NCBI RefSeq assembly: GCF_000003815.2
Contig: NC_049981.1
Span: forward strand, 31,222,777-31,286,776
Reading direction: 5' to 3'
DNA: 64,000 nucleotides
DNA from: Branchiostoma floridae
Taxonomy: Eukaryota > Chordata > Leptocardii > Amphioxiformes > Branchiostomatidae
This document shows positions 20,601 to 63,781 of this stretch, in pieces. Position 1 is the first letter of the stretch, and each line of letters opens with the position of its first letter. Under the pieces are notes generated by a model. That model did not search any database, was not told where the DNA came from, and saw only the letters and a list, made by a program, of their open reading frames with translations. The position numbers and the translations under genes were made by a program.

Positions 20601-23600
20601 GGAAGCAACAGTCGCCGGGAGCACTGCGTACATGCCCCCGAGGATTTGTGGTCATAATTACGGTGTGTTCCCGTTCAGGGTAAGAGGACTAGTACTGGGC
20701 GACCTGTCCAGTATGTCGCTCGCTGTGCCGTGAAGCCAGTTGGCATCCCGACGACATAGCGTCCTCACTACTCGGTAACGTATGCAGGGGAATACAGCGA
20801 TGGTCGGGTTTGCTTTTCTCAGTTCATATAATTTTGTCGTGTCAATAAAGATTGTATTGTATAATTGCAAAAAAAAACTTTCCTATCATCTAGAAGAACA
20901 TTTATTATCTCATGTTCTCCCAGAAAGGCTGGTATTTTCTATAATCTTGAAAACCAAACGGGAAACCCCTTAGATTTCGAAATCACCGAAGAGGAAGTAA
21001 AGAATGGCTTACGAAATCTGAAAAACAACAAAGCATGTGGTATTGATTCGATTCTCAATGAGATGCTGAAATATGGAGACACAAAACTTATCCCACCACT
21101 AAAAAAACTATTCAATGTCATCCTTCAGTCCGGCAATTTCCCACAAGTATGGAGTAAAAGCATTTTAGTCCCAATATTTAAAAGCGGCGTCACTTCAAAC
21201 CCATCAAATTACAGAGGGATAGCTATTTCCAGCTGCGTTGGAAAACTATTCACATTTATACTAAACAGACGATTGCAGCACTTTCTTGAAAACGAAAACA
21301 TATTATCTCCTTTTCAGTCCGGCTTCCGAAAAGACTTCAGGACAAGTGATAACATATTTGTTCTAAAAACTTTAATAGATCAACAGATATCTGTACCTGG
21401 AGGAAAATTATATGCCTGTTTTGTGGATTTCAGGATGGCTTTTGATTCAGTCTGGAGAAATGGGTTATTTTACAAACTTTTATCTTCTGGCATTGGTGGA
21501 AAGTTCTTTAGTATGATAAAATCCATGTATTCCAATGTAGAATTCTGTGTTAAAACATAAAAAGGTTTGTCAAATTACTTTAAATCAACACGTGGAGTAC
21601 GCCAAGGTTGTAACCTAAGTCCGCTTCTTTTTAATCTTTTTGTAAATGATCTCCCAACTTTATTAACCTCACCATCATCCGATCCCGTATTTCTAAAAGA
21701 TACCCCCATAAGCAGCCTGCTCTGGGCAGACGATCTTGTGCTCCTGTCCAGATCAGAAGCAGGACTAAAGGAGTGTCTCAAAGGACTAGATAAGTACTGC
21801 TCCCTGTGGAAACTATCCATCAACAGGGATAAAACCAAAGTCATGGTTTTCTCTAAAAATGGACGAGCATACAAAAATCAGCGCTCCCCTTTCCAAATAC
21901 AGGGACAGACCATAAACATCACAGCCTCTTATACATATCTTGGAATAGACATAACCCCATCGGGATCTTTCAATCGTGCTACGAAACAAATCAGATTAAA
22001 AGCCCTTCGCGCATCGTTTAAACTTAAATCTCTATTGGCATCTAACTACAATCCGTCTATCTCCCTCTCCCTAGATTTGTTTAACAGCCTAGTCAAGCCT
22101 ATTTTACTTTATTGTAGTGAGGTAATAGGGACCAATATTCGATGCAGAGACTTTATTCTAAATGGTATAGTAGAGTTACCAAATGAAAATATTAGGGAGA
22201 AAGTCTGCAACATGTTGTCTCCGATTTTGGGATCTAATGTACATGATCTAGTTCTTAAGGTTGCCCGTACTGGGAAGAAATCTGATACAGTAGCATGTCG
22301 CCCTGTTCTAGTGCGTTTTAAGAAGTACAAAGATAAGTTGAATGTCTTATATAATTCAAAAACCCTAGCTAATCAAAATGTTTTATTAGAACAGCCTACA
22401 ACGTCCTATGAGATACCTGACTTGGAATATGTTCTTCTTAACTATTGCAAAATGCTTCTCTGTGTCCCAAGAGGCTCTGTAAACGCTGCCATCAGAGGCG
22501 AATTAGGAATGTTTCCATTATACGTTGACATGCAAACACAACTTATTAAATACTGGCTTAGACTACGTACCCTACCCAATGATAGAAATGTAAAGAAGGC
22601 ATATGACTTTGTTCAGTAGTACGTGCACGCCGTGGCTGCGATTTACTTAATTTACATTTCTTACTAGATTTCTACAAGTTATGAATGAAGCAAAAATTAA
22701 AACTGAGTAGTACTCGTCTTTACAAATACAAGAAAAGCTATGGAATTACAGCAGTTNNNNNNNNNNNNNNNNNNNNNNNNNNNNNNNNNNNNNNNNNNNN
22801 NNNNNNNNNNNNNNNNNNNNNNNNNNNNNNNNNNNNNNNNNNNNNNNNNNNNNNNNNNNNNNNNNNNNNNNNNNNNNNNNNNNNNNNNNNNNNNNNNNNN
22901 NNNNNNNNNNNNNNNNNNNNNNNNNNNNNNNNNNNNNNNNNNNNNNNNNNNNNNNNNNNNNNNNNNNNNNNNNNNNNNNNNNNNNNNNNNNNNNNNNNNN
23001 NNNNNNNNNNNNNNNNNNNNNNNNNNNNNNNNNNNNNNNNNNNNNNNNNATTAGCCCTGTTGCTCTCCCCAGATTTGTTTGCCACGCCTAGTCGAGCCTA
23101 TTTTACTTTATTGTAGTGCGGCAATAGGGACCCATATTCGATGCCGAGACTTTATATCTAATGGCATAGTATCAGTTACCAACATGAAAATATAAGGGAG
23201 AAAGTCTGCTACATGTTGTCTCCGATTTTGGGATCTAATGTACATGATCCAGCTCCTAAGGTTGCCCGTACTGAGAAGAAATCTGATACAGTAGCATGTC
23301 GCCCTGTTCTAGTGCGTTTTATGAAGTACAGAGATAAGTTGAATGTCTTATATAATTCAAAAACCCTAGCTAATCAAAATGTTTTATTAGAACAGCCTAC
23401 AACGTCCTATGAGATACCTGACTTGGAATATGTTCTTCTTAACTATTGCAAAATGCTTCTCTGTGTCCCAAGAGGCTCTGTAAACGCTGCCATCAGAGGC
23501 GAATTAGGAATGTTTCCATTATACGTTGACATGCAAACACAACTTATTAAATACTGGCTTAGACTACGTACCCTACCCAATGATAGAATTGTAAAGAAGG

Positions 23601-26600
23601 CATATGACACAGCAGTTGAACATGAACTAGAATGGACTGTCCATGTTCAAGATATTTTGTGCAGGCATGGTTTCCAAAGTGTTTGGCTAAGCCCTGCGGT
23701 TGATGCCAAACACTTTGGTAACATATTCAAAGAACGTTTAAAAGACACATTTCTCTCTGGCTGGCGACGAGAAATAAACAGTTGCAACAAACTAAAAACC
23801 TATTCCCAAATCAAAAGTCACTTTATACTTGAAAATTACCTCTCGTCAGTTCGTAATAAAGCCTTTGCTGTCAACATAACCAAATTAAGAATCAGTTCAC
23901 ACTGCTTGGAAATAGAAAAAGGTCGGTACCGTAATATACCAGCCAACCAGAGGCAATGTCCTTCATGTAAAGATGGTATTGAAGATGAGTACCATTTTCT
24001 AATGACATGCCCCACATATAGCGTAGATAGACAAAAATTAATGGATACAATCACATGTAAATCTAGCACACCTTTACCAAAGACAAACAAATGTACTTTC
24101 AATCTACTTATGTCATGTCCAGACAACATATCTTCGTATTTAGGCCAATACATATGTAATGCTCTAAAAAAGAGAGAATCTATTGTACAGTAACAGTTCG
24201 ACTTGTTTATATATAAACTTGCATATTACATTATGTCAATACGCCATTTATGTTCATATTCCTGTACTATACATGTATGTAGTTATAGACCTTAGACGAA
24301 TATCATTGTATTAATTGACTTATCACTGTTGCCTTACAATTGTACCATGTGCAAATGTCGTGCAATAAAGTTCATTCATTCATTAACAGTTGTTGTGTTT
24401 AGCTAAACCTAGGCGTAACAGCGTACAAAGGGGATGGTGTTTTTTTCAAATTCAAATTTATTCGCCGTCAACTATGAATAACGAACAACGTGACATTGAA
24501 TTTCTAATTAGCAGCTCCCAGAAGAGGTTCACGTGTGTCATGTGATGGGACGTTATCCAATGACAGACAAGAGTGGGTTTTTTAAACCTAACGAATATGC
24601 AGAATTTATAGAAGAAACCAGTTTGCAGGGCGTCTGTTTCGGGACAAGTCACGAAGGAACCTTGGACCCGTTTCAACACACGGATTATCGGTGTGGTTTT
24701 GCCGCATATGGATTCCGACGGAACTACAAGACGGAACGAATACTAGGACACTCACGGCTTTCCGGAAATGGAGTATGTTGGAGAGTCTTCAACGGGGCAC
24801 AACTCAGGGTGAATTCAATATTGTGTCGTATTGACCAGCATCCGCTGGAGGAGACTACATGGAGAGCACGGCCATCACGAAACAGTGCCCATCCTCGGAA
24901 ATCTCAGCGAATTTTTCTACTGTGATGACAAGATGGAACTAAATGGTGCTTGAAATGACGTCTTTTCAGTCGTATCGCCCGACACTGGACTCCAAATTGT
25001 GGACTTGAATGTAGCGGAGATTCGTGTATGGATATTGTACACCGATTGTTCCCTTGGTCGACCAAACCAAGTCCACAATAAGAATTAAAATATAGTTTAG
25101 ACGAAGGAGCCTCAGCTACCTAGTCGCTATGATTCGAACCAAATGAGACACGCATACCCAATGCACATGGTGCGGAAACTTTTAAGCCACACAAAACACA
25201 TAAAGCCAACCTAAAGATGCGGAAAGGTTTAAACTTACGCAGCCTTTACTAAAAATAAACGACAACTATAGTCCAAGAAAAGATCACGGAAAGCGTTCGG
25301 ATAGGTACGTTTCTGCACTTCTTTACGTACCTTTCAGGCTGTGTGAACGACACATAAACGTGGGGGAAATCATGACGGAAATCGAGTGTAAAGGTGGTCA
25401 AAAGATCACGGAAAAGTCTTATGAAACGCACGCTTTCCGCCCGAAATATTGTTATTAACGACGCCTTTAAGCGTCTAATAGTTGCGGAAAGGTCTGCGGA
25501 AAGGTCTGCGGAAAGGCACGTGAGGAGTGCCGAAACGTACATATAAGTGCCAACGTAAAGGTAACATTAAAGGGAATCTTTACGTTCACGGAAAGAAGTC
25601 GTTAAGTTGCGGAAAGGGTGCAGAAACGTCGCGTTTACGTTGAGTTTAAGCTTGCTTAAATACCAGATTTCGTGCTGTGTAGTATCGACTAATTATACCA
25701 CATGTATGGAAAAGGTAATAGTTTGGTAAAGAACAGGCTTTACACTAAGGTATTTGTATCATGGACTACCCAAGATAACATTTCAACAAAGACCTACATG
25801 AAGATGACATTACCCGTTGTCTTGCCAGACTGTCCGTGAGCCAGGAGCTGGGCCTACAGAATGGACCTGAGATGGAGTACTGCGGACCGCCCTCCCATCT
25901 GGAGAGGATAGACGAGGGGGTCACAGCACGGCCCAAGGTGGGTTCTAATGGCACTATATTGTTCTGCAGTTGCACTCTTTGATTAACTGATAGAGTTGCA
26001 GGCACAGCACGACGGCTGTCACTTTGTTATAACCAACTAGTCTACCTTTACACAGTGTCCCAAGAAAGGCGCATCCCATTTCAGTGTCACTTTGGTCTAC
26101 TGCACCAAAAGCGAAAACATTAACATTTCGAATCTAGTTGCACAGCACTTAGGACTCTAATACGATGCTAAACTTTTTCCAAAACAAAGGTATACACGGA
26201 TCAAATTTTCAATGACCACTGTTGCCTTCTTCAGGATCAATACTAGAGATTGTATAGCAGCCGGTTCTGTGTTCCGGGCGGAAAAAGCAACGTAAACGTT
26301 GGTCAGATTGTTGAAAGGAACTGTCAAGTACTTAAATCCAATATCTGAGTGCAATGTTTAATTTTTGTTTCTGTTTCTCCTCCCCCAGGGCATAGGCTAC
26401 ACCGTGTACCTGGCCAGTAACAAGTCCCAGCCGGCCCGGGTGGACAGCGACAGCGACTTCTGGTCCGGCAAGTCTTCCTCCGAGTCTAAGGAGAGCGTGT
26501 CGACCGTGTCTCAGGCCTCGGACAACGAGGGGAAGGAGGCAGCAACGGAGAGCAAACAGGTGAAGACTTCAGTTATATCTCAATGGTAGAATAATGCTTA

Positions 26601-45400: not shown

Positions 45401-48400
45401 TTTATGATGATGATTTCGTACATCTTGAAATTGTCTGTTAAAAGCCTCGATTGGCAAATTTTTAAAGAAAAATTCCAAGGTACAAGGAAACGCATACATG
45501 AACGTAGTTTGGTTGGCCAAAAAAATAATACCTATACCTAAATACCTAACTCAAAAGGAAAAACTGTTGTTCTCCCTTACAGGCTTCCCAAGTTGACCTT
45601 GACGCTATCCAGGTCACGGCCCTGCGTATTGTGTTCGACCTTCTGCTCATCTTTGGCCTGAAGGCTTTTGGGGCTGAGAACTCGGAACAGCAGAACCAGG
45701 GGGAGGGAGAGGGGGAGACAGAAGAGCCGCAGCAGGCCACGCCTAACAACACAGCCAACAGCCTGCTGTCCATCCTGACAGGCATGCTGGACTCGGAGGT
45801 CAGTGTTCATGATACATCAAGGCTGTCTCAAGTTTTGTTTCTTTTTCTGTCCCATGTTGTTCATTTTCTTTGTTAAACCTATCATTTTAAGCTTCCAAAA
45901 ATGCGTTTTCATCAGTTTCATGCCATGAAGTTCAGATTTTTTTTAGACTAACGGAGTGGAATGTCCATCCTAAAAAGCTAATTTCCATGTGGAAACAAAG
46001 GACATGTCTTTAAGACAACCCTGCTGCAAAACCATGTCAATTTCTGCTCTTTTTTTGTCCCACATCTTTGACTTTGACCTGTCATAGACAGATGACTTGC
46101 AAGTGCACATTTCTCTAGCTTTATATTTCTGCCCCCAGAACACAGATATCCGCACCAACGCGGCAGAAGGCCTGGCTAAGTTGATGATGTCAGGCCGAGT
46201 GCTGAGCTGGAAGCTGCTGTCCAGACTGATGCTTCTGTGGTACAACCCCACCACCGAGGACGACACACATCTGCGACACTGTCTGGGGACATTCTTCCCC
46301 ATGTTCGCCTTCTCTGGGAGGTTTGTACATTCATTTTGTAACTTCTGTTGTTGTTGTCTATACATCAGACTAGTATATTCCTGTATCCTTTGCACTATTT
46401 GAGGTCATTCTTCCCCATGTTCGCTTTCTCGGGCAGGTTGGTAGCTTCTGTTGTTTAAACTATTACTTAAAAAGTGCATGCCTGTATCCCACCACGCCAC
46501 CTACATGTACATCTTTCCCATGTTTGCTTTCCCTGGCAGGTCGGTACTACTACTGCTTCTGGTGTTGTGTATACTCTTACTTCACACAGTCTTTGTTCTA
46601 TTAGATAGATAACCTCCTACCACACACACCCTCCTCTCATTATACAGCCCCAAAGAAAGTAGTAACTTGCTTACATTTTTGTAGTTCAGTGTTTAGTGTG
46701 TCGCTCACCTGACATGCACGCTACCAGAAACGGTTGCAGTCCTTAGGTCGGGACGTTAGTCTGGTCATTGAGCTAGAAGAATTTCCCAGTACAATAAACC
46801 TGTGAAAACTGTACATAGCATCTGCCTTCTCTGCCACAACAGGTGGAAGAGTAGCTCTTCAGTGAGCTGAACTGGATTGATATCACTGTCACTTTAACAG
46901 CTTCATAACAGAACTTCTTTCCTCCCCCTTCCCCAGGTCCGCCCAGGAGTGTGTGGAGGAGGCGTTCCTCCCCACCCTGCAGACATTACTGGACGCTCCC
47001 GACACGTCGCCCCTGGCAACGGTTGACGTGGGCAACGTGGGGAGTCTGCTGACCACGCTGACGAGCCGCGCCAACATGAAGCAGTTCTGTGTGGAGAGGA
47101 CGGGGAAACCTGACCTGCCAAGGGATATGGAGGTGGGCAGGAACATAATGTTGTGACTCACAGTTTTAGAACTCTTAAAGTGAAAACCTCACATTCCCTT
47201 CTACCACGAAGTCCCAGTAACAAAAATGAATTCACAGTACTGGGACAATCCAAGACACTTGCGGACAGTGCTGTCACATGTCCATTGTATTTTAGTATCT
47301 TCACTATGTTACAAGTTTTGTGCGTTGGGTGTCTCAAAAATTAATTTGTCTTTTGGTGGGGTGAGGGGTTGCAAACTGAATTTCTAAACCTGATTGTCCA
47401 TATTTTCTACCAAATCACATGTTCTCCCCAGGACTACTCTGCCCTGAGTCATGGCAACCTTCCCCTGAAGCTGTGTAACAAATGGTTTAAATTTCCTGTC
47501 TCTAAAATTTAGCACATTGTCTATCTATCCCCAGGAGTACTCTGCCTGATATAACTTGGCCCTAAAGCTGTGTAACAAATGGTTTTCTGTCTCTAAAATG
47601 GAGCACATTATTTTTTCTCCCCAAGGGCTACTCAGGCCATGATAACCAGGCCCCGAAGGTGGGTTTTCCTGTTTCAAAACTGACTTCCAACCCTCCAAGA
47701 TCTATTTATTCTGGTGAAAAACTGTCTAGTTGCTACTATGTAGTCAAATTGTTGTCTTTTTCGCCCCAGGACTACTCTGCCCATGACAACCTCGCCCTGA
47801 AGTTGTGTAACGAGATCCTGAAGGACACCTACTCGCCTGACGTCAGGATGTTCTGTAAGATCCTGGGGACCATGGAGCCCACAGCCTCAAGTACTGCACA
47901 CCTCAAGGACCTGTACGTCCTGTCTCAGCAGATCACTCAGGTGAGGGAGTTATACATGTATCTTCATCGACATCCTTGCAAGAAAACTACCAGTCCTGGC
48001 TGTATAACACTGTTCTTCTTGGTAGCTCGAAAACTTAGAGGTTGATTCTATCAACCTTTCAACCTTGCAACTGTTGCTCAACTAGTTAAAATGCAGATAC
48101 ATGTACAAAATGATGTTTTGTTTTCTGTCTTCTCAAGAAGTTAGATGACAGATGAGAATGTTCCTCTGTTCCATGGATACAAATGGTTTACTTTCTTTGT
48201 TTATCAGTTGTTCGAATTGCGTTCCATGGAGGTAAATGTTTTCGTTTTTCCCCAGGAGTTGGATGACAGAATGTCCCTGAAGTACATGGACCAGTTCCAG
48301 AAGACCCTGTGTGAGCTGTGCCCAGGTCTGACAGGGGACGGTCAGGGGGACACCAGTCAGACTGGACAGGAGAACACGAGTCAGACTGGACAGGAGGGGA

Positions 48401-55047: not shown

Positions 55048-55883
55048 CTAAGCATTGCTTGCATACCTCTTATGATTTTGGATAGCATCTTTGATCCAAT
55101 ATTTCACTCCCTCGGCTCCTGTGAGCCAGGCAGGCTGGTCTGTGGTTTGGAAGTCAGTTAACACTACCTCAGTGAGATTTCTTAGACTCCCGAAGTCCCT
55201 GCTGACTTGGGACTTGTGCCTGTCCAGTATCTGAGTTGCCTCTTGTTGATTCCTCACACCACCACATTTGTTGACACACAGGAGCACAGGAACACTCAGG
55301 TCTTTCACCCTGGCAAGGGCACCAATATCAGTGTAATAACCTTGAAAAATGAAAGGAATGAACCATTACAATATGCTTCTATTAGGAACGTCTTCAAATA
55401 AGCAAATTAAACCTGTTTCATGTTACCATGTTGTTGTTTTTTTTGGGGGGGGGGGTCAGCTTCCCAGGATGACCTAGAGGTGAGTGATCCCACCACCTGG
55501 CACTGTGATGTCTCCCATCAGTGATGACTAAAATTTGTATGACAAAGGTTCCATGTACAAAGTTTAACCTAATTTTGAAAATTGACCTTTGTTCTTATAC
55601 AAATGACACCAATCTTCAGCCTTAGCAGCTGACCTTAAGGATGCTAATGTGGGTCACTGAAGTGGTCGTTGATGCTGGCCTTATTTGCAAATCCTGGTAT
55701 GAATAGTAGCTGAGAGAATACCGATTCAGGAATTGTGGTAGGAACAGGATATTTGTAGATCTTACCTGACACATACTCCACCATACAGATGAAGGCACCG
55801 CACACGCCTGTACACAGCTTGTGAGCTGCATGCACCTCTTCCCCCTGGCCACCAGGAAAGGTGAGGACAGGCAGTGTGAGTTC
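55048..55883 (-). CDS. GTPase C-terminal exons 7-8 (G3 and G4 regions)
   Basis: Exon 7 (55883-55766) encodes ELTLPVLTFPGGQGEEVHAA, where FPGG occupies the place of the DxPG switch motif, followed by a hydrophobic strand (GVCGAFICMVEYVSG). Exon 8 (55340-55048) encodes YYTDIGALARVKD, the strand VPVLLCVNKCGG (G4-like, N-K-x-G instead of N-K-x-D) and VVLTDFQ..DQPAW, where IRGs carry an 'xSNxD...' segment. The stop TAG is at 55048-55050. There is little sequence after the G domain, so the C-terminal helical domain of typical IRG proteins is short or absent. Confidence 0.78.
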
Positions 55884-58800
55884 CTGGAAAAAATTGGAAT
55901 CAGAAACTTAACCTCACTGTTGCATAACAAGCATCGTCTTCAAGCATCACGGAGGGCAACTTGTTTACTGGATGTTCACTGTGCCCTCCCTTTCACTAAA
56001 TCTACTAAATCTATAGGGCTTATTCAGTCACGTGATCCACCCTCTAGCAACTACCCGGACGCCATAGTAACGAGCGAAGTCGGCCATTTTGGGGTCCACT
56101 TTGAGCGCGGCTCACTGTGCATGTGGCTCGCTATGCAACTCCCCGGAAAAGTTGAAAATATTTCTTATGTAACTCACAATTTCCCTTCAAAATGTTTAGG
56201 TTCATAATCACGGTGTTTTGTCTTGTGGTAGGATGCTGGTCTAGCACTGGTAAAGCCTACACACATCGGGTAACAGTAAACTTTGTTTCGCAGTGTCTGT
56301 GAACAGCAACCTAACGTAACCCAGCCCTACAGTCGCGTTCCCATCCCGATCACAACGCACCTTCTGTTAACGGTCAACCCGAACTCTCTTACCATTTACC
56401 AGTACATGTTCAGATAATACATGGTTTTAGGCCTTCTGAAACGTGTACGCTTTGAACTGATTTTATGTGCAAAAAGTCGTACCCACAATCACTATCAAAT
56501 AAGAGATAACTAAAGATTGATGGCAGTCTCCATTGTCACTTTGCCGTGCTCGGGGATGAGGAGTGGGTCAAACTGGTCAAACCTTCCCTAACTGATGAAA
56601 AAAATGGTTAATTTACACCCAATTTCTGTAGTGAAAATAAGACATGAGGTTGTAGGCTCTTTGCATAGTCAAACATCGTTCAACCCAATTCACTTTCTTC
56701 TGATATTTTAGAGACCTTCGGAAACATCGCTGTACAGTAGCGCCAAAAAAAAAGTCATTGGACCCCAAGATGGCGGCGCACAGGTGCAAGGGGTGATGAC
56801 GTCACATGAATTAAAGCCCTATAAACAGCCAAATCTGTGGTGGGGACCACCTCCGTACATAGGGACCACTTGGCCTTTTTGGTAGTCCCTTGATAGAAAG
56901 TTTTTCCCTGGTTTGACTGTAAACAGATATATTGATGTCAGGCTTTGCCTTAGCTTGGTAAGTCTTCTTGCCTTACTCTGATGCATCTTCTATTAGGCAT
57001 CTAATGAAAAAGTTAACCTGAAGTCATACACCTCTTTGAGGTCTTTGAAGAAAAACAACTGACAGATTGAATTGCTCAATGTAGAGTACAGTTAAATATC
57101 CTTTATTAAATTAAAGCCCATGCTACATTCTAACACTCATTGAAAAAAAGGTACAACTTACCTCAAGCTCCTCTGACCCATCATATGATACTTCGTAGGG
57201 ACAGGTTGTGGCGTGATGTGCTTTTTGTTCTGCCTTGGGTAAGACAGACCTCACAAGAGTAGCCTTACCACTGCCTTTATACCCGACAACTCCCAACACG
57301 AACTCTTGCCTAAGCAGACGACGCAGTTCAAAATGGGTGTGTGCAATGATCATGGTGTCATTGACGTTGGTGATGCTGTCATCTGTAAGCCACACCTTTG
57401 CACTGTAGTTGAAGCTAGTTGCGCCAGATGGTACAGTTCCAGGCTTGAGTGAGCTGACGCGATATACAGTGTCCACTCTATCTTTTTCAACATCCCGAAT
57501 GATCTTGTATTCACTTTCAACCTTTACCCCATTCACGATGCGCCCAAGTTTCTCCTCAGTCATTCCTATCTCATTAACTATTTTTGGCAGAAGAATCAGA
57601 GCTTGCAGGTAGTTGAGTTTGAAGACAGCAGTTTTCTTCTCTGATTCATCTAAGACTCGAAAGGCAACTACAAGAAACCGGTTATCTCCAAATATTGCTG
57701 CAGCAGCTATGATTACAGCAACTACCGCGACCAAAGGTGCAGCTGCAGAACAACATTGATAACATGATGAAAAGGGTGATGAATATAATTGCAATATTAG
57801 TTGCTTTTTCATTCTTAATCAGTAATTTTGTTCTGCAGCATCATGAAAATTAGGAAGTTTATTACTTAATGGTCTATGGACACATAAATTAACTACAATG
57901 TACAATGTTCAAGCAAGCAGAATCAACTCACCTATTGCCATAACTGCTTGACCTATAACTGCCACCGCAACTCCAAATGCATGTTTCCACCATGACGTGA
58001 TTTTGATTTCCAGAGGAGCACCAATGACTTCCATGGCTTCAGCCGCAGATGTCACAACTTGGCTGTACTCCTCACTGGAGATGGCAATGGCTTCACTGCC
58101 GAAGGCCACTGATGCTGCAGATGGTGGCACACTCCTACTATCTTTTATAATATTGTGGCTTGCCCATGAATGGTTGAATTTTCCAGAATGAACGAGCTCT
58201 TTGTTCTCTGACCGCCCTGTCAAGAAAGTACAGTCTACTCAGAGGTTTCCAGATTTTAAAAAAAATATCGAAAGTCAATTATGAACGAGCAATGATAAAG
58301 GGTTAATAACCAAGTTAATGATCTGCCCCTCATTGTACAAGTATTTGCTGCCATATCGCCTGGTCCTTTCGTATAACCACCTCATAAAACCAACAAGTAA
58401 CCAAAGTGAATGATGTGGCTTAATGAGGTGGGTAAAAGCACCAGGAAGTATGACACCATATGTACACTGAGGAATAGCTGGGTCATCATATAGCCTATGG
58501 AAATTGGCTCATGCATACAAGAGATACAAATTCTTGTGTGGTGCTATATAATCATGTGTGAAAAATTCAACTGGTAATTTACATTCATTACATCCATAAA
58601 GAAGATTATAGATTTCCTTTTGACAATATTTTGTAAAATTGCAGTCTTGGCAAGTCAAATCTTTTTCCAATCTACTCTACTTCACTTTATTCATTCCTCC
58701 TCTGCAGGGGATATTTATCTCCTGATTTTCAATGTCCTGTGTATCTCTCATTCTGATCGGTTTGGGTCTTTTATAGCATAAATGTATGCTTAGGTCTTTT

Positions 58801-61800
58801 ATAGTATAATGCTACAAAAGACTAGCCTGGTATCCAGCCGTAATATAGTCCCGATNNNNNNNNNNNNNNNNNNNNNNNNNNNNNNNNNNNNNNNNNNNNN
58901 NNNNNNNNNNNNNNNNNNNNNNNNNNNNNNNNNNNNNNNNNNNNNNNNNNNNNNNTCGGGAACTATATTACGGCTGGATACCAGGCTTACAAAAGACCCA
59001 GTTCTTTATACCTTACAATATTTATTTTTATGCTATTAAAAAAACCTGGATATTACCCTGTCCTTCTATGATGTTACAGTGTCATGAAATGGGGACTTCT
59101 GATTGGTTAATGTAACCCGCCCTAAGGAATGTATGGTGGCATAAGAGCACTGTCGGCCCCTGTAATCACCGAGGAACAGCTGAGTAAAGCGAGTTACAGT
59201 TGAATTTGACTCACTTTTGATCACTTCAATCAGTGATTGCAGGTATTCTAGAATAGCATTAGCTGTTAAGTGCTGTCCCAGTAAGGTTAACACCATGCTC
59301 ATCAGGTAGGCTGAGGCCAGGAATGTTGCACGAGTTCCCTCCACCACTCGTTCATACTCGTCATCGCTGTTACCAAATTTCTGAAAAGAGTGCATTTGAG
59401 GTTATTGTAGATGAAATTTTTTCGGTCTGACAATATTGTCATTGCCAGCCTACCAATCTATAGGTCAAAGAAGACCATTGCTATGAGAATCCCATCCTTG
59501 CTACTATGAGTATGAGGCAGAAAAAAAGGTAACTTTTCATCAAGTATTAATCTACATCAAGATTCCTAATTACCCCCATGAACCTCTGGGTGGATTGTAA
59601 TATTTGGTATGTAGGTAGGTATTTGGAAGACTAAGGTCATTATGGGCCCTGTGGTGCATGCATGACCTTGATACTGCAGCAGAACTTCTGAATCTGTTTT
59701 GTATCTTTTGTCCTAGACAAACTACCATGCTATGGTATTGACTTTTTTGTTGTACAGTTGATAGCTTGTGATGTAAGGAAGAAGTGGTGTAGGTTTGGGC
59801 CCCTAAAAGTTTGCTCTGGTACTGCAGGAGCATTTTTGTTAAAATATTTGTAGGATAATTATAGATTAGACCATTTAGAATTATAGATTATGTTCATTCA
59901 TCATCATAGTCATATGGTGTATTACAGCACCGCTGGGGTTATACCGCCCCTTACGGGTGGCATACCCTTTCTTCTAGCTGAATACGAGATGGGGATGCGC
60001 CAGGTCTCCCGTCCGGGTGAATGATGTAAATCACCGTGTGGCTGATACGGTATGGAGGTTCGCCAGGCCTCCAACCGGGTGATTTGAAGTTTAGCACCAT
60101 CTCCAGACAGAAGGGTTTGCTCCATCGCACACCGCACCATTGCACATGTGGGGTGGGGTAGAGATGTTTTCCTAGCCGTTCGAATTTTTCTGTTGGGGTA
60201 GGTGATGTGTTCCATGGCTGTCTTGGATGGTATGGATGCGCCACCTGAAATCGTCCCTTGCGCCGCCGACAGCCATGATAGAGTTTTTGAAGCATCCGGC
60301 TACCATGTACATTTCGGTCTTTTATCACTCTCTTATGACTAGGAGGATATACATAATGTACGCCTCGAGTTTCTCATATTACTTCAATGTGTGCAAGTAC
60401 TGAACTTCTGCAAGATGGGGCAAGTTATCCCGTATAATCTTCAAATGACTTGTGCAGATCAGAGTTTCATTTTAGTTGCATTTTCAGTTGCAACTGAATA
60501 TACTTACATGTATGTCATGTCATGCGAGGAATGCTATACTGGAATATCCAACGAAATAATTAGAAACAACCCCTTTTCCTACACACACAATGTCGATTTT
60601 GCTGTCACTAAGTGTATAGGGGGCAAAATACGTGACAACGTCAAGTCAGCTGCAGTGTGCGCTTCTTCCGCCAGGCGGCCCCCAAAACCAGCCCATTGAC
60701 ACCTGTTCTACATGCACCTGTTACAGGCTAGTGAAAATTTTTTCGGCGATGGATGGACCAGGATGTCTTTAGTTGTTTAAGTCAATTAAGTTACATCAAT
60801 TGATATTACCGGTGCACACACCAATTCTTTTGCAACAGGGGTCCGAGGTAGTCCTATTTATTTTTGAGTAAGGGTTTTTTCAAGGCTTTTGTGTGCCCAG
60901 TGGTTTAGTGTAGGAGACGTGTGGTGGATATAGCTTGCTGTTTTCATGAAGTGCGACTCTTATAGCTTCATTTTGGTTAGGTTTGGCCGGCGAATCTTGG
61001 CTTCCGGGTATCGCTCCGATTCATGTTCACCTGAGTAAAGTGAGGAAAGCTGTGTAAAGTGCCTTTCCCAAGGGCACAAGATCGATAACACACAGCCGGA
61101 TTCGAACTCGAGACCTCTCGGTTCTAAGCCAAACACGCTGCCGCTGCGCCACACTCAATGTTCATTACATCCTTATTTATATGACCAATGAAATTTACAA
61201 ATTAAAGAGCTAAATATTTCAAGGAGGTATGAGTTCTCCAAACTCTATTTTTCCTGCAGTCACACATGTACAAATTTATTCAATTTCTTGAAGAGGCCTG
61301 AATGCAAGAGAACTAACCCGTTGACGTGCTGTATCATCCCTCCTTTGCTGGAGATCGCTGTACAGAACCCTTCCCTTCCCTGCTGGAAACTTGTCTGTGA
61401 ACCACGTCTCTGCCTTGGTGCAGATCTCGGCTCCTGTCATCTGCAGGTCAGGGATGGTGGCTGTCGGTTCCCGTGGCAACAGTGTCCTAGCAACCCACTG
61501 GGTCACCTCAACACGGTCCCAGGTCCTGGGGTCTGTGTTAACAAGACAGGGTTAACGGTTTGTTTATTTGTATTGCATACCCGGTAAACCACCTGGCGGA
61601 GTAACACACTAGGTTTGTACTGCAGAGCTGCATATATGGACAGATTTAATTGGTCCACTCACACCGGGAAGGAGCCCTAATCTTTTTGGAAGGTTCTTTT
61701 GCATGCTCGAGGTGTGGCTGTCCTCAAATGCTGGAGCTCCATTTAACGTCCTATCATGAAAAGGACCTCCCTAAGCTAACAATAATATTAAGCCATGCAC

Positions 61801-63781
61801 TCATTTTTACCTGTTCTACTAACATAAAATAAGATAACCCTGTATATTCGGTGAGATTTTCTTTTCCATCAAATGTGCTGCAAGTTGTTGCCAAAGTTGG
61901 GGTGCATACTTTATTTATTTGAGGATATTGCACAGATGAATGTAAAACAGGATCAGAAAAAGAGTAAGGTGATGCTGAACTTCTCATCCTCCTACGCACG
62001 GTCCCCAATGGCTAGCTAACTCAGCCTATGGGGCCCTGCTATTTCATGCCCTATCAGTGGTTATTATGATTTTCGCCACAAACCAGCTGTCAACCAATCA
62101 GAGAATAGGCTTTTCTTGGGCTTTTTGTTGTCGCAAGCTGTCTCGCAAAGGCCGCTGGAAAGCTATCAGCCAATCATGTTACGTATTACATGGCTCCATC
62201 CTCCTACGCCCGATCCCCAACGGCTGACTGCCCATATAAGGGCAAGCTCATTAATATTCATAAGCAAGGCGCCCTAATAACTGAATTCTGTGGCTGAGTT
62301 GTCAGGGGTGATATCGCTAGGCTTTGCCGCGATTGTCAACCCTGAGTGTGAGGGTGCAACTTCTAAGAAGTACAGAAAATATACAGTCATAACAATGTTT
62401 TTGTGTACAACATTTCTTCTATTCTAAACAACTTTCTTAGATGTGGTAGCTATAGGCAACATAACAATTAGGTTTCCGTACTTACCCTGATGAAGCTCCC
62501 CAGTGAAGAGTGTTGCATCTTCAACTTTCAGGTAGATGACCCCAAGACGACGAAGCTCCTCCTTACACTCTTCAGATGCCATCTTCAGTGCATACTTTAC
62601 TGTGTGGCTCTCTTTTAGCAGGTACTTGGCAAGCACACATTCACGTTGGCTCACTTCGTCTAGGATTTCATTTCCCATTCCTGGTTTGGCTCGGTCAAGG
62701 GCTGCCGCAATGTCTTGACATTTGTCAATGTAGTCTTGTACAGACTCTGCAGAATGCTTTATTTCCAAAACTGCTCTGGCAAATGCTAGGTTGTATTGAA
62801 ACAAGAATATACAACTCAGTTACATGCAGGCAGCACACAACTCATAGTAATGCGTTATTCTGGTGGCAGTTGCATCCTGTCAAAAAGATTTTTTTTCACT
62901 ATTGATAGGATGCTTTGTCAGAGACATGCCAAAATTGGGAGTATCTACTGTAAATGAATATTTTTGTGGAGAAAAAACAATGTCAAATATTTTGTTCTAC
63001 CCCTTATCTAAGCCTAAACATAAGGCATCCTGTCAATAAAAAAATTGTTTCACTATTGATAGGATGTTAAGAATTTACTATGCTATTGACAGGTTTGACA
63101 GAAATATCCTGTCAATAGTATAGAGAATTCCTAACATCCTTATTTCATAAATGGTCAGAAAATGATACTATAACCTTCTTTCTTAAATATGACTGTCAAC
63201 TTCTGTTTGTCAGTGTAGATAAGGGCCTTATTTGCATAATCAATTAGAAACACAATATATCAGTCATTAAGGTGAAAACCATTTAGCGAAGGTATGCGGT
63301 TGTGGAACTCTTACTAGTTCTATTTCTGGTGCCAGCACAACACTTTTTCTTAATACTAGTTATCATTTCACTCACTTCCCGGCTCTGGATCGGTAAACTG
63401 TTGAATCCGCTCGAAAAGCTGCATGTTCGGGAGACGCCGAAGGAGTTCCTTCACCATTTCAAGAGCTTCCTTTCTTAGAAAGTAACGTAGGATTAACTCA
63501 GGCATGCCTTGTCGGCTTGTGCCCATAATCAGACGCCTTGGAATACTCTTATTGCCGCTACTGACAACGCCCTCCAGACGATTTTGGAAACTCGTGTATT
63601 CTTCATCGTCCATGTGTTCGAAGACTCCCAACAACAGTTCCTTGTAAGGTCCATGCAGGTTACTGCGGAGGAGTTCATCCACGGAGTACAACGGTTGATA
63701 TGAACGTGACGCGGGAAGGCTGGGTGGGGAGGAATACCCAGGGCCCCAGCCCTGCCACGAAAAACCGCCACCTGTTGCCAT
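55048..63781 (-). CDS. Pyrin-like / PNT-SAM-like / IRG-like GTPase protein
   Basis: Eight exons on the minus strand, in coding order: 63781-63376, 62785-62486, 61532-61318, 59380-59215, 58216-57932, 57742-57162, 55883-55766, 55340-55048. They total 2364 bp, 788 codons with the stop and all phases consistent; GT/AG at every junction. Domains: 46-129 pyrin-like six-helix death fold; 136-235 charged helical region, unassigned; 237-300 PNT/SAM-like; 309-362 helical; 442-476 strongly hydrophobic, possibly one or two membrane helices; 604-787 GTPase with P-loop GYKGSGKA (611-618) and VNKCGG (713-718). The GTPase most resembles immunity-related GTPases but departs from G1, G3 and G4 consensus. The start ATG has A at -3 and G at +4. 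Role in innate immune signalling is inference from the domains. The weakest join is exon 4 to 5, where an alternative donor exists. Confidence 0.82.
56012..56823. mobile_element. Inverted-repeat element in intron 6
   Basis: Ends TATAGGGCTTATTCA.TCACGTGA and the complement TATAGGGCTTTAATTCATGTGA are imperfect inverted repeats. GGCCATTTTGGGGTCCA near 56083 is mirrored by TGGACCCCAAGATGGCG near 56760. About 810 bp, no transposase frame. A TA or TATA duplication is possible but merges with the ends. Confidence 0.6.
57162..57742 (-). CDS. Exon 6: hydrophobic stretch to P-loop
   Basis: 193 codons. It begins with APLVAVVAVIIAAAAIFG, the second half of the hydrophobic segment started in exon 5 (FGVAVAVIGQAVMAIG). 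Then comes a mixed alpha/beta region (480-600) without a recognised family, and at its end FVLGVVGYKGSGKATLVRSV: a beta strand and P-loop. The residue after the invariant Lys is Ala instead of Ser/Thr, with a Thr one place later. The donor is GAG|GTAAGT. Confidence 0.82.
58823..58988. mobile_element. Foldback with central gap, TAGCCTGGTATCCAGCC termini
   Basis: Left TAGCCTGGTATCCAGCCGTA..ATAGTCCCGA and right TCGGGAACTATATTACGGC...ATACCAGGCTTA are inverted arms of about 32 bp around a 100-N gap (58856-58955). The terminus matches the family of the foldback at 31937. It lies in intron 4 of the pyrin/GTPase gene. Confidence 0.78.
59925..60310. repeat. GC-rich unassigned repeat in intron 3
   Basis: The block is GC-rich against its surroundings and has an internal echo: GGGATGCGCCAGGTCTCCCGTCCGG... 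then GGAGGTTCGCCAGGCCTCCAACCGG..., about 67 bp apart. On the minus strand a frame of about 125 codons spans it without a recognised domain. It looks like a SINE/LINE-derived fragment. Confidence 0.45.
60962..61160 (-). mobile_element. tRNA-derived SINE (minus strand)
   Basis: On the minus strand TGGCGCAGCGG (61151-61141) matches a Pol III A box and GTTCGAATCC (61107-61098) a B box, at tRNA-like spacing. A core phrase, GTGCCCTTGGGAAAGGCACTT, that I recall from deuterostome SINEs follows. The tRNA part could not form a complete functional tRNA (extra bases in the anticodon region). It lies in intron 3. Confidence 0.7.
61318..61532 (-). CDS. Exon 3: PNT/SAM-like domain
   Basis: 71 codons encode PRTWDRVEVTQWVARTLL...IPDLQMTGAEIC......F.DKFPAGKGRVLYSDLQ. 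The spacing W-x4-V-x2-W-V, then hydrophobic-x-M-x-G-x-E-[IL]-C and a G-x-x-LY-x-x-L close matches the Pointed/SAM fold, used in ETS factors and other proteins for homo- or hetero-oligomerisation. The whole domain sits in one exon. Confidence 0.72.
62872..63140. repeat. Three short palindromes around CCTGTCAATA
   Basis: GCATCCTGTCAA...TTGATAGGATGC at 62872-62912 and a similar palindrome at 63024-63066 are followed by a longer one, AGGATGTTAAGAATTTACTA.. to ..TAACATCCT, at 63061-63140. All share CCTGTCAATA/TATTGACAGG. Possibly remnants of one inverted-repeat element with nested copies, in intron 1. Confidence 0.8.
63376..63781 (-). CDS. Exon 1: pyrin-like domain
   Basis: 135 codons. After a Gly/Ser/Pro-rich start, residues 46-129 read as a six-helix death fold: YKELLLGVFEHMDDEEYTSF (helices 1-2), the loop ...NKSIPRRLI, ELILRYFLRKEALEMVKELL (helices 4-5) and NMQLFERIQQF (helix 6). 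The I-P-R after helix 2, and 'EAL.MVKELL..LPNMQL.ERI' aligning to '..ALEVT..VL..INM.DLAERL', are the pyrin-domain pattern; CARD or DED remain possible. Recognition is by eye. Confidence 0.7.

What the first reader, a model, noticed from the sequence alone, without database searches (positions are those of the whole stretch)
55048..63781. Unusual fusion: pyrin-like + PNT/SAM-like + hydrophobic segment + IRG-like GTPase
Eight exons splice into one 787-aa frame with no phase conflict, so the fusion is not an artefact of adjacent genes. Pyrin domains nucleate filaments, SAM/PNT domains oligomerise, and IRG-type GTPases act on membranes; having all in one chain suggests a self-contained sensor-effector. 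I know of no described protein with this order of domains.
Basis: partly seen in the sequence, partly recalled or inferred. Interest (0 to 1): 0.92.

Follow-up and report, generated by a model that had tools for sequence, protein, structure and literature searches.

The report
Lancelet pyrin–pointed–P-loop fusion gene
A gene in what is probably a lancelet genome appears to join a pyrin domain, a type of inflammation-signalling module thought to be found only in vertebrates, to a clustering domain, a membrane-like stretch and a worn-down GTPase-like end, so it could show that this signalling module is older than vertebrates.

Summary
The exon chain holds as a gene model. Eight minus-strand exons (63781-55048) join in phase into exactly 787 aa. 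PYRIN and SAM_PNT both pass Pfam's cut-offs. Residues 38-135, folded without an alignment, match solved pyrin domains ahead of DEDs. Of 3 PYRIN matches found in this 513-Mb genome, only this one is over the cut-off. The pointed exon keeps the phase-1 5' boundary seen at all 5 other pointed exons found.

The IRG label is not supported: IIGP lists 15 places in this genome but not this gene, and three G motifs have each lost a key residue. I read the C-terminus as a degenerate P-loop, GTPase-like regulatory domain of unresolved family; an IRG origin is possible.

No transcript evidence was available.

Main interest: two papers, of which I read passages, hold pyrin domains to be vertebrate-specific (PMC11508797, PMC2575513).

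The parts
63376..63781 (-). Exon 1: start codon and pyrin domain (Pfam residues 50-122, about 63416-63634)
   Evidence: fold of residues 38-135:
62486..62785 (-). Exon 2: about 100 aa with no family match; phase 1-1, so skipping it keeps the frame; weak acceptor
61318..61532 (-). Exon 3: SAM/pointed (PNT) domain (Pfam residues 233-299); 5' boundary as at the 5 other pointed exons
59215..59380 (-). Exon 4: no family match (scanned joined to exon 5)
58856..58955 (.). 100-N gap in intron 4, inside a short inverted-repeat (MITE-like) element; TACAAAAGAC lies 0-1 base outside each end (58813-58822, 58988-58997)
   Evidence: (its 82-nt arms count the Ns)
57932..58216 (-). Exon 5: linker and start of the hydrophobic stretch (from 57983 down); phase 1-1
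57162..57742 (-). Exon 6: rest of the hydrophobic stretch (57742-57687), then a region without a match, then the P-loop
57261..57284 (-). G1/P-loop GYKGSGKA, residues 611-618 (Ala where Ser/Thr is expected)
55766..55883 (-). Exon 7: TFPGG at residues 659-663 (55848-55862), in place of DxxG
55048..55340 (-). Exon 8: NKCG at residues 714-717 (55261-55272), in place of NKxD; end of protein with stop

Best explanation
This is one gene, with no second copy found in this genome, coding for a four-part protein: a pyrin domain, a PNT/SAM domain taken from an ETS-type pointed exon, a 36-residue hydrophobic stretch and a C-terminal degenerate P-loop (GTPase-like) domain. Proposed mechanism: the hydrophobic stretch holds the protein on a membrane; the C-terminal domain, which has lost residues expected to contact magnesium and guanine, acts as a non-catalytic docking or regulatory module; PNT contacts and membrane crowding cluster the protein; clustering brings pyrin domains together so that they seed a death-fold assembly (filament or speck) that recruits adaptors and caspases. 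Shown here: exon chain in phase, two Pfam-level domains, pyrin-type predicted fold, hydrophobicity, loss of G-motif residues, no second copy for the 5 of 8 exons tested. Inferred: membrane insertion, absence of GTP hydrolysis, clustering, filament seeding, any role in immunity, and the downstream partners.
Against: No transcript or protein evidence. Acceptor 2 is weak. A 100-N gap lies between exons 4 and 5. An alternative end lies after exon 3. In-frame codon scores are not significant against stop-free stretches in any of the 8 exons (P 0.11-0.35). The G-like region has no significant family match. Exon 6 did not fold without an alignment (pLDDT 39.6). The pyrin match is modest: best solved structure E 0.013 by sequence, 0 of 162 Foldseek matches reach E 0.001, and lower-ranked pyrin rows overlap the DED rows in Z (8.1-10.3). 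No second lancelet genome could be searched.
Confidence: 0.42

Rival explanations
1. Two transcription units or alternative ends: a short pyrin-pointed protein ending just past exon 3, and a separate 3' protein (exons 4-8) with the hydrophobic stretch and P-loop domain.
For: Reading past donor 3 gives a stop at 61278-61276 and an AATAAA at 61280-61275; an in-frame ATG lies just upstream of exon 4; donor 3 is the weakest donor (rank 23 of 545); a gap lies between exons 4 and 5.
Against: 10 AATAAA and 3 ATTAAA occur on this strand of the region, so one there may be chance; acceptor 4 ranks 41 of 636 and is in phase with donor 3; the ATG context is poor (C at -3 and +4, sequence).
Confidence: 0.22
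2. The C-terminus is an active IRG-type GTPase that works on membranes.
For: hhalign prefers the lancelet IRG profile (score 37.1) to the AIG1 profile (27.5); TFPG differs by one residue from the DFPG found in 9 of the 9 IRG-like frames among 12 read; TT follows the P-loop in both.
Against: No IIGP match for this gene; the hhalign match is 37 columns around the P-loop, probability 58; Ser/Thr of G1 and Asp of G3 and G4 are missing; no room for a helical domain after the G-like region.
Confidence: 0.08
3. The N-terminal domain is a divergent DED or other death-fold domain that happens to score as pyrin, so nothing is said about pyrin's age.
For: DED scores 18.6 bits on the domain; papers find DEDs in place of PYDs in amphioxus ASC and NLRs (PMC3196919, PMC2575513, passages); the PYRIN score is less than 2 bits over the cut-off in the full protein; the best DED structure ties in Z with the lower pyrin rows.
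Confidence: 0.2
4. A decaying gene or an assembly chimera at the gap in intron 4.
For: 100-N gap; G motifs eroded; no second copy of the exons tested.
Against: All eight exons are open and in phase with usable splice sites; the gap lies between paired inverted ends with TACAAAAGAC 0-1 base outside both, its only 2 copies in the window; 39 exact copies of the end occur in the genome, and 3 other pairs span 101-146 bases end to end, so probably only the inside of one small element is missing.
Confidence: 0.08

Closest known systems
Pyrin domains of ASC and NLRP proteins
   Same: Pfam PYRIN over cut-off; predicted six-helix fold with a four-residue third helix, TM (query) 0.60-0.80 in the pyrin rows shown
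   Different: No CARD, NACHT or LRR in the protein; found in a genome taken to be a lancelet's; linked to a pointed domain and a P-loop domain
ETS-family pointed (PNT) domains, and Drosophila MAE
   Same: SAM_PNT over cut-off; best solved match MAE, E 6.6e-4; same phase-1 5' boundary at 6 of 6 pointed exons found in the genome
   Different: No ETS DNA-binding domain found in the protein
IRG (IIGP) GTPases and quasi-IRGs (IRGQ)
   Same: P-loop followed by TT and an xFPG motif; quasi-IRGs also lack GTP-binding motifs (PMC1297648, passages)
   Different: No IIGP match; profile similarity confined to 37 columns; no helical domain after the G-like region; pyrin and pointed domains in front
DED exon in front of a GBP exon in the same genome (C167, L030)
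   Same: Death-fold exon in front of an immune GTPase exon
   Different: DED rather than pyrin; GBP P-loop with Ser; no pointed match on that contig; that the two exons are one gene is not shown

Membership tests
Pyrin domain (PYD) | Pfam PYRIN gathering score reached | tested here: met
   24.6 bits full protein, 28.0 exon 1, 29.2 residues 38-135; cut-off 22.9
Pyrin domain (PYD) | Scores better as pyrin than as DED, CARD or death domain | tested here: met
   DED 18.6, below its cut-off 35.9; CARD and Death not listed at E up to 10, with HMMER's filters on
Pyrin domain (PYD) | Six-helix fold like solved pyrin domains | tested here: met
Pyrin domain (PYD) | Self-assembly into filaments | not testable with these tools
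   Needs protein
SAM/pointed domain | Pfam SAM_PNT gathering score reached | tested here: met
   27.8 bits, cut-off 24
ETS transcription factor | ETS DNA-binding domain | tested here: not met
   No Ets match at E up to 10
IRG (IIGP) GTPase | Pfam IIGP match | tested here: not met
   None; this gene not among the 15 places
IRG (IIGP) GTPase | G1 GxxxxGK[ST], G3 DxxG, G4 [NT]KxD (recalled) | tested here: not met
   GYKGSGKA, TFPGG, NKCG
IRG (IIGP) GTPase | Helical domain after the G domain (recalled) | tested here: not met
   Only 70 residues follow NKCG
NLR (NLRP type) | NACHT and leucine-rich repeats | tested here: not met
   Not listed for the full protein
PseudoGTPase | GTPase fold | tested here: inconclusive
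   Motif order and spacing fit; small_GTP E 0.091, below cut-off; exon 6 did not fold
PseudoGTPase | One or more G motifs lost | tested here: met
   Key residues of G1, G3 and G4 lost
Transmembrane protein | Segment hydrophobic enough to span a membrane | tested here: met
   19-residue windows up to 2.85 on the Kyte-Doolittle scale; insertion itself not testable

The most novel reading that the evidence does not exclude
A genuine pyrin domain exists outside vertebrates, built into a membrane-anchored pyrin-pointed-pseudoGTPase protein. Pyrin signalling would then predate vertebrates and have begun outside the NLR-ASC system, with a dead G domain as the regulated switch.
Probability: 0.4. Interest if true: 0.8.

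Novelty: new variant of a known kind. Interest (0 to 1): 0.6.

Why it matters
[quoted passage not shown] A pyrin domain in a lancelet would move the origin of this signalling module back before vertebrates and give a testable gene with no second copy found. The join to a pointed domain and an eroded P-loop domain would be a new way of controlling a death-fold domain.

Tried and rejected
Family of the C-terminal domain: Pfam, NCBIfam, PADLOC, solved structures and profile comparison with lancelet IRG and AIG1 profiles gave only P-loop-level similarity. With the part after the P-loop shuffled, 0 of 60 shuffles reached the observed score for either profile, but the means were close (34.7 against 37.1 for IRG; 24.3 against 27.5 for AIG1), so little similarity lies beyond the P-loop; with everything shuffled 0 of 60 reached it either. 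The first AIG1 profile held only two domains of one locus; one search used 15 loci of the 27 matches. The IRG profile used 8 of the 15 places (L012-L019); the 7 left out were short, AIG1-like or below cut-off. MMR_HSR1 lists 33 places, none at this gene.

Fold of exon 6 alone: pLDDT 39.6, not used for a fold search. VIA-align re-ranks Foldseek's own list, so families absent from it are not excluded. Viral and prokaryote collections: no relative of exon 6 in viral contigs or of the pyrin domain in genome contigs; these scans find close relatives only. Exon 2 has no match among solved structures at E up to 1. Papers: the search for pointed plus pyrin domain listed 10 of 25 papers, none on such a protein by title; amphioxus plus immunity-related GTPase gave 0 papers. 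The library is open-access PMC only and annotated lancelet protein sets were not searched.

Codon usage supports the frame (best of six in 8 of 8, with stops in other frames penalised) but not coding on its own (P 0.11-0.35 against stop-free stretches; for exon 6 the null used 300-base stretches; the null excludes this gene's exons but not its neighbours'). Training codons came from 12 loci of the IRG search, including AIG1-like and below-cut-off ones (L022, L025, L026).

Full report
WHAT IS THERE. On the minus strand, eight exons from 63781 to 55048 join in phase into 2364 bases, 787 residues plus stop. Introns are 590, 953, 1937, 998, 189, 1278 and 425 bases. The codon-usage score is highest in the annotated frame in 8 of 8 exons (stops in the other frames are penalised), although against stop-free non-exon stretches it is not significant in any (P 0.11-0.35). 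All 7 donors rank in the top 23 of 545 GTs and 6 of 7 acceptors in the top 41 of 636 AGs; acceptor 2 ranks only 216 of 636 (the weight matrix is generic and recalled). Exon 2 has phase 1 on both sides, so skipping it would still join the pyrin exon to the pointed exon in frame.

SOURCE. The window lies at C3:31222777-31286776 of a genome of 513,431,437 bases in 431 contigs.

POINTED DOMAIN. SAM_PNT scores 27.8 bits (cut-off 24); the best solved match is Drosophila MAE, E 6.6e-4. The genome search with exon 3 at E up to 10 finds 6 places, 5 of them elsewhere with E 0.005-8.0; all 5 score 34.4-81.6 bits as SAM_PNT. At 6 of 6, an AG falls at the same point, splitting the first Asp codon after its first base (phase 1); use as an acceptor is inferred. 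One of the 5 (L009) has an in-frame TAA at the end of the match. The shared boundary argues that the pointed exon was copied from an ETS-type gene; that the 5 others are ETS genes was not tested. No ETS domain is found in this protein.

HYDROPHOBIC STRETCH AND C-TERMINUS. Residues 441-476 are strongly hydrophobic, up to 2.85 over 19 residues. The P-loop GYKGSGKA begins at 611, TFPGG at 659 and NKCG at 714, spaced 48 and 55 residues; in Ras the spacings are about 47 and 59 (recalled). The Ser/Thr of the P-loop and the Asp of G3 and G4 are replaced by Ala, Thr and Gly. Pfam, NCBIfam, PADLOC and solved-structure searches give no family at its cut-off. The IIGP model lists 15 places in this genome, 13 over cut-off, none of them this gene; some are exons of one gene and at least one is AIG1-like. 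hhalign prefers the lancelet IRG profile (8 sequences; 37.1) to AIG1 (15 sequences; 27.5), but the IRG match is 37 columns at the P-loop, probability 58. TFPG differs by one residue from the DFPG of 9 of 9 IRG-like frames; the 3 other frames read lack DFPG. Descent from an IRG remains possible. Exon 6 alone did not fold (pLDDT 39.6).

COPY NUMBER. Exons 1, 2, 5, 6 and 8 each match only themselves in the genome (E up to 0.001 for and up to 10 for the others). Exons 4 and 7 were not searched; exon 3 finds the pointed exons above. The tool's counts are lower bounds.

CAVEATS ON ONE GENE. A run of 100 N at 58856-58955 lies in intron 4, between the two halves of the fusion. It is flanked by a 26-base inverted repeat, and the 10-mer TACAAAAGAC, found only twice in the window, lies 0-1 base outside both ends (2 of 100 shuffles held 2 copies anywhere). 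The inverted end has 39 exact copies in the genome, the window's 2 included; 3 other pairs span 101-146 bases end to end. The simplest reading is one small inverted-repeat element with its own target duplication and an unsequenced middle, so the halves are probably adjacent. Reading past donor 3 reaches a stop and an AATAAA within 43 bases; 10 AATAAA occur on this strand of the region, so this may be chance, but a short pyrin-pointed form is possible.

MECHANISM. My best reading is a membrane-held scaffold that clusters through its pointed domain and seeds pyrin assembly, with the C-terminus as a non-catalytic regulator. Every functional step is inferred. PMC5593906 (passages) gives the precedent of pseudoGTPase domains that do not bind nucleotide; PMC1297648 (passages) describes quasi-IRG proteins that lack GTP-binding motifs.

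LITERATURE. [quoted passage not shown] PMC2575513 (passages): vertebrate-specific PYRIN, with CARD, DD or DED as connectors in amphioxus NLRs. PMC3196919 (passages): amphioxus ASC and NLRs carry DEDs in place of PYDs. I also saw passages of PMC10155998, PMC6526094, PMC8195603 and PMC12373286, none of which showed a lancelet pyrin domain. By title and start of abstract, the listings (20 of 81 papers; 15 of 15; 15 of 22; 15 of 27; 10 of 25; 8 of 613) showed no paper on one either. Only open-access PMC is held and annotated lancelet protein sets were not available, so a database entry may exist.

VERDICT. Interest 0.6.

Noticed in passing
G000:C1:6512277-6524395, C4:23977967, C5:11979597, C10:12387600, C13:7331015, C276:22050 (L012-L021): Several open IRG-type (IIGP) frames in this genome: 13 of 15 listed matches over the cut-off, some of them exons of one gene or AIG1-like. 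PMC1297648 (2005, passages) held the IRG system to be missing in invertebrates.
   Followed up: partly
L030:8218-9788 (G000:C167): A DED exon lies about 1 kb in front of a GBP N-terminal exon on the same strand; a possible DED-GBP fusion. Splice junction not established.
   Followed up: partly
L028:9269-9694 (G000:C2): A sub-threshold pyrin-like exon (19.1 bits) lies in front of ankyrin- and LRR-like frames on the same strand, as in LRRK-type genes; the ankyrin and LRR labels are by eye.
   Followed up: no
window 61275-61317: Stop and AATAAA just past donor 3: possible short pyrin-pointed form.
   Followed up: partly
window 58824-58987: Short inverted-repeat element with a 100-N middle; 39 exact end copies in the genome.
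   Followed up: yes
window 20865-24193: Reverse-transcriptase frames, RVT_1 46.5 bits for 20865-21560; observed only.
   Followed up: no
window 45550-46402: Plus-strand frames matching condensin subunit domain Cnd3 (31.2 and 71.0 bits), an NCAPG-like neighbour gene (the gene name is recalled).
   Followed up: no
window 61030-61160: A stretch of intron 3 with a GGATTCGAACTC box that looks like a tRNA-derived repeat; by eye only.
   Followed up: no
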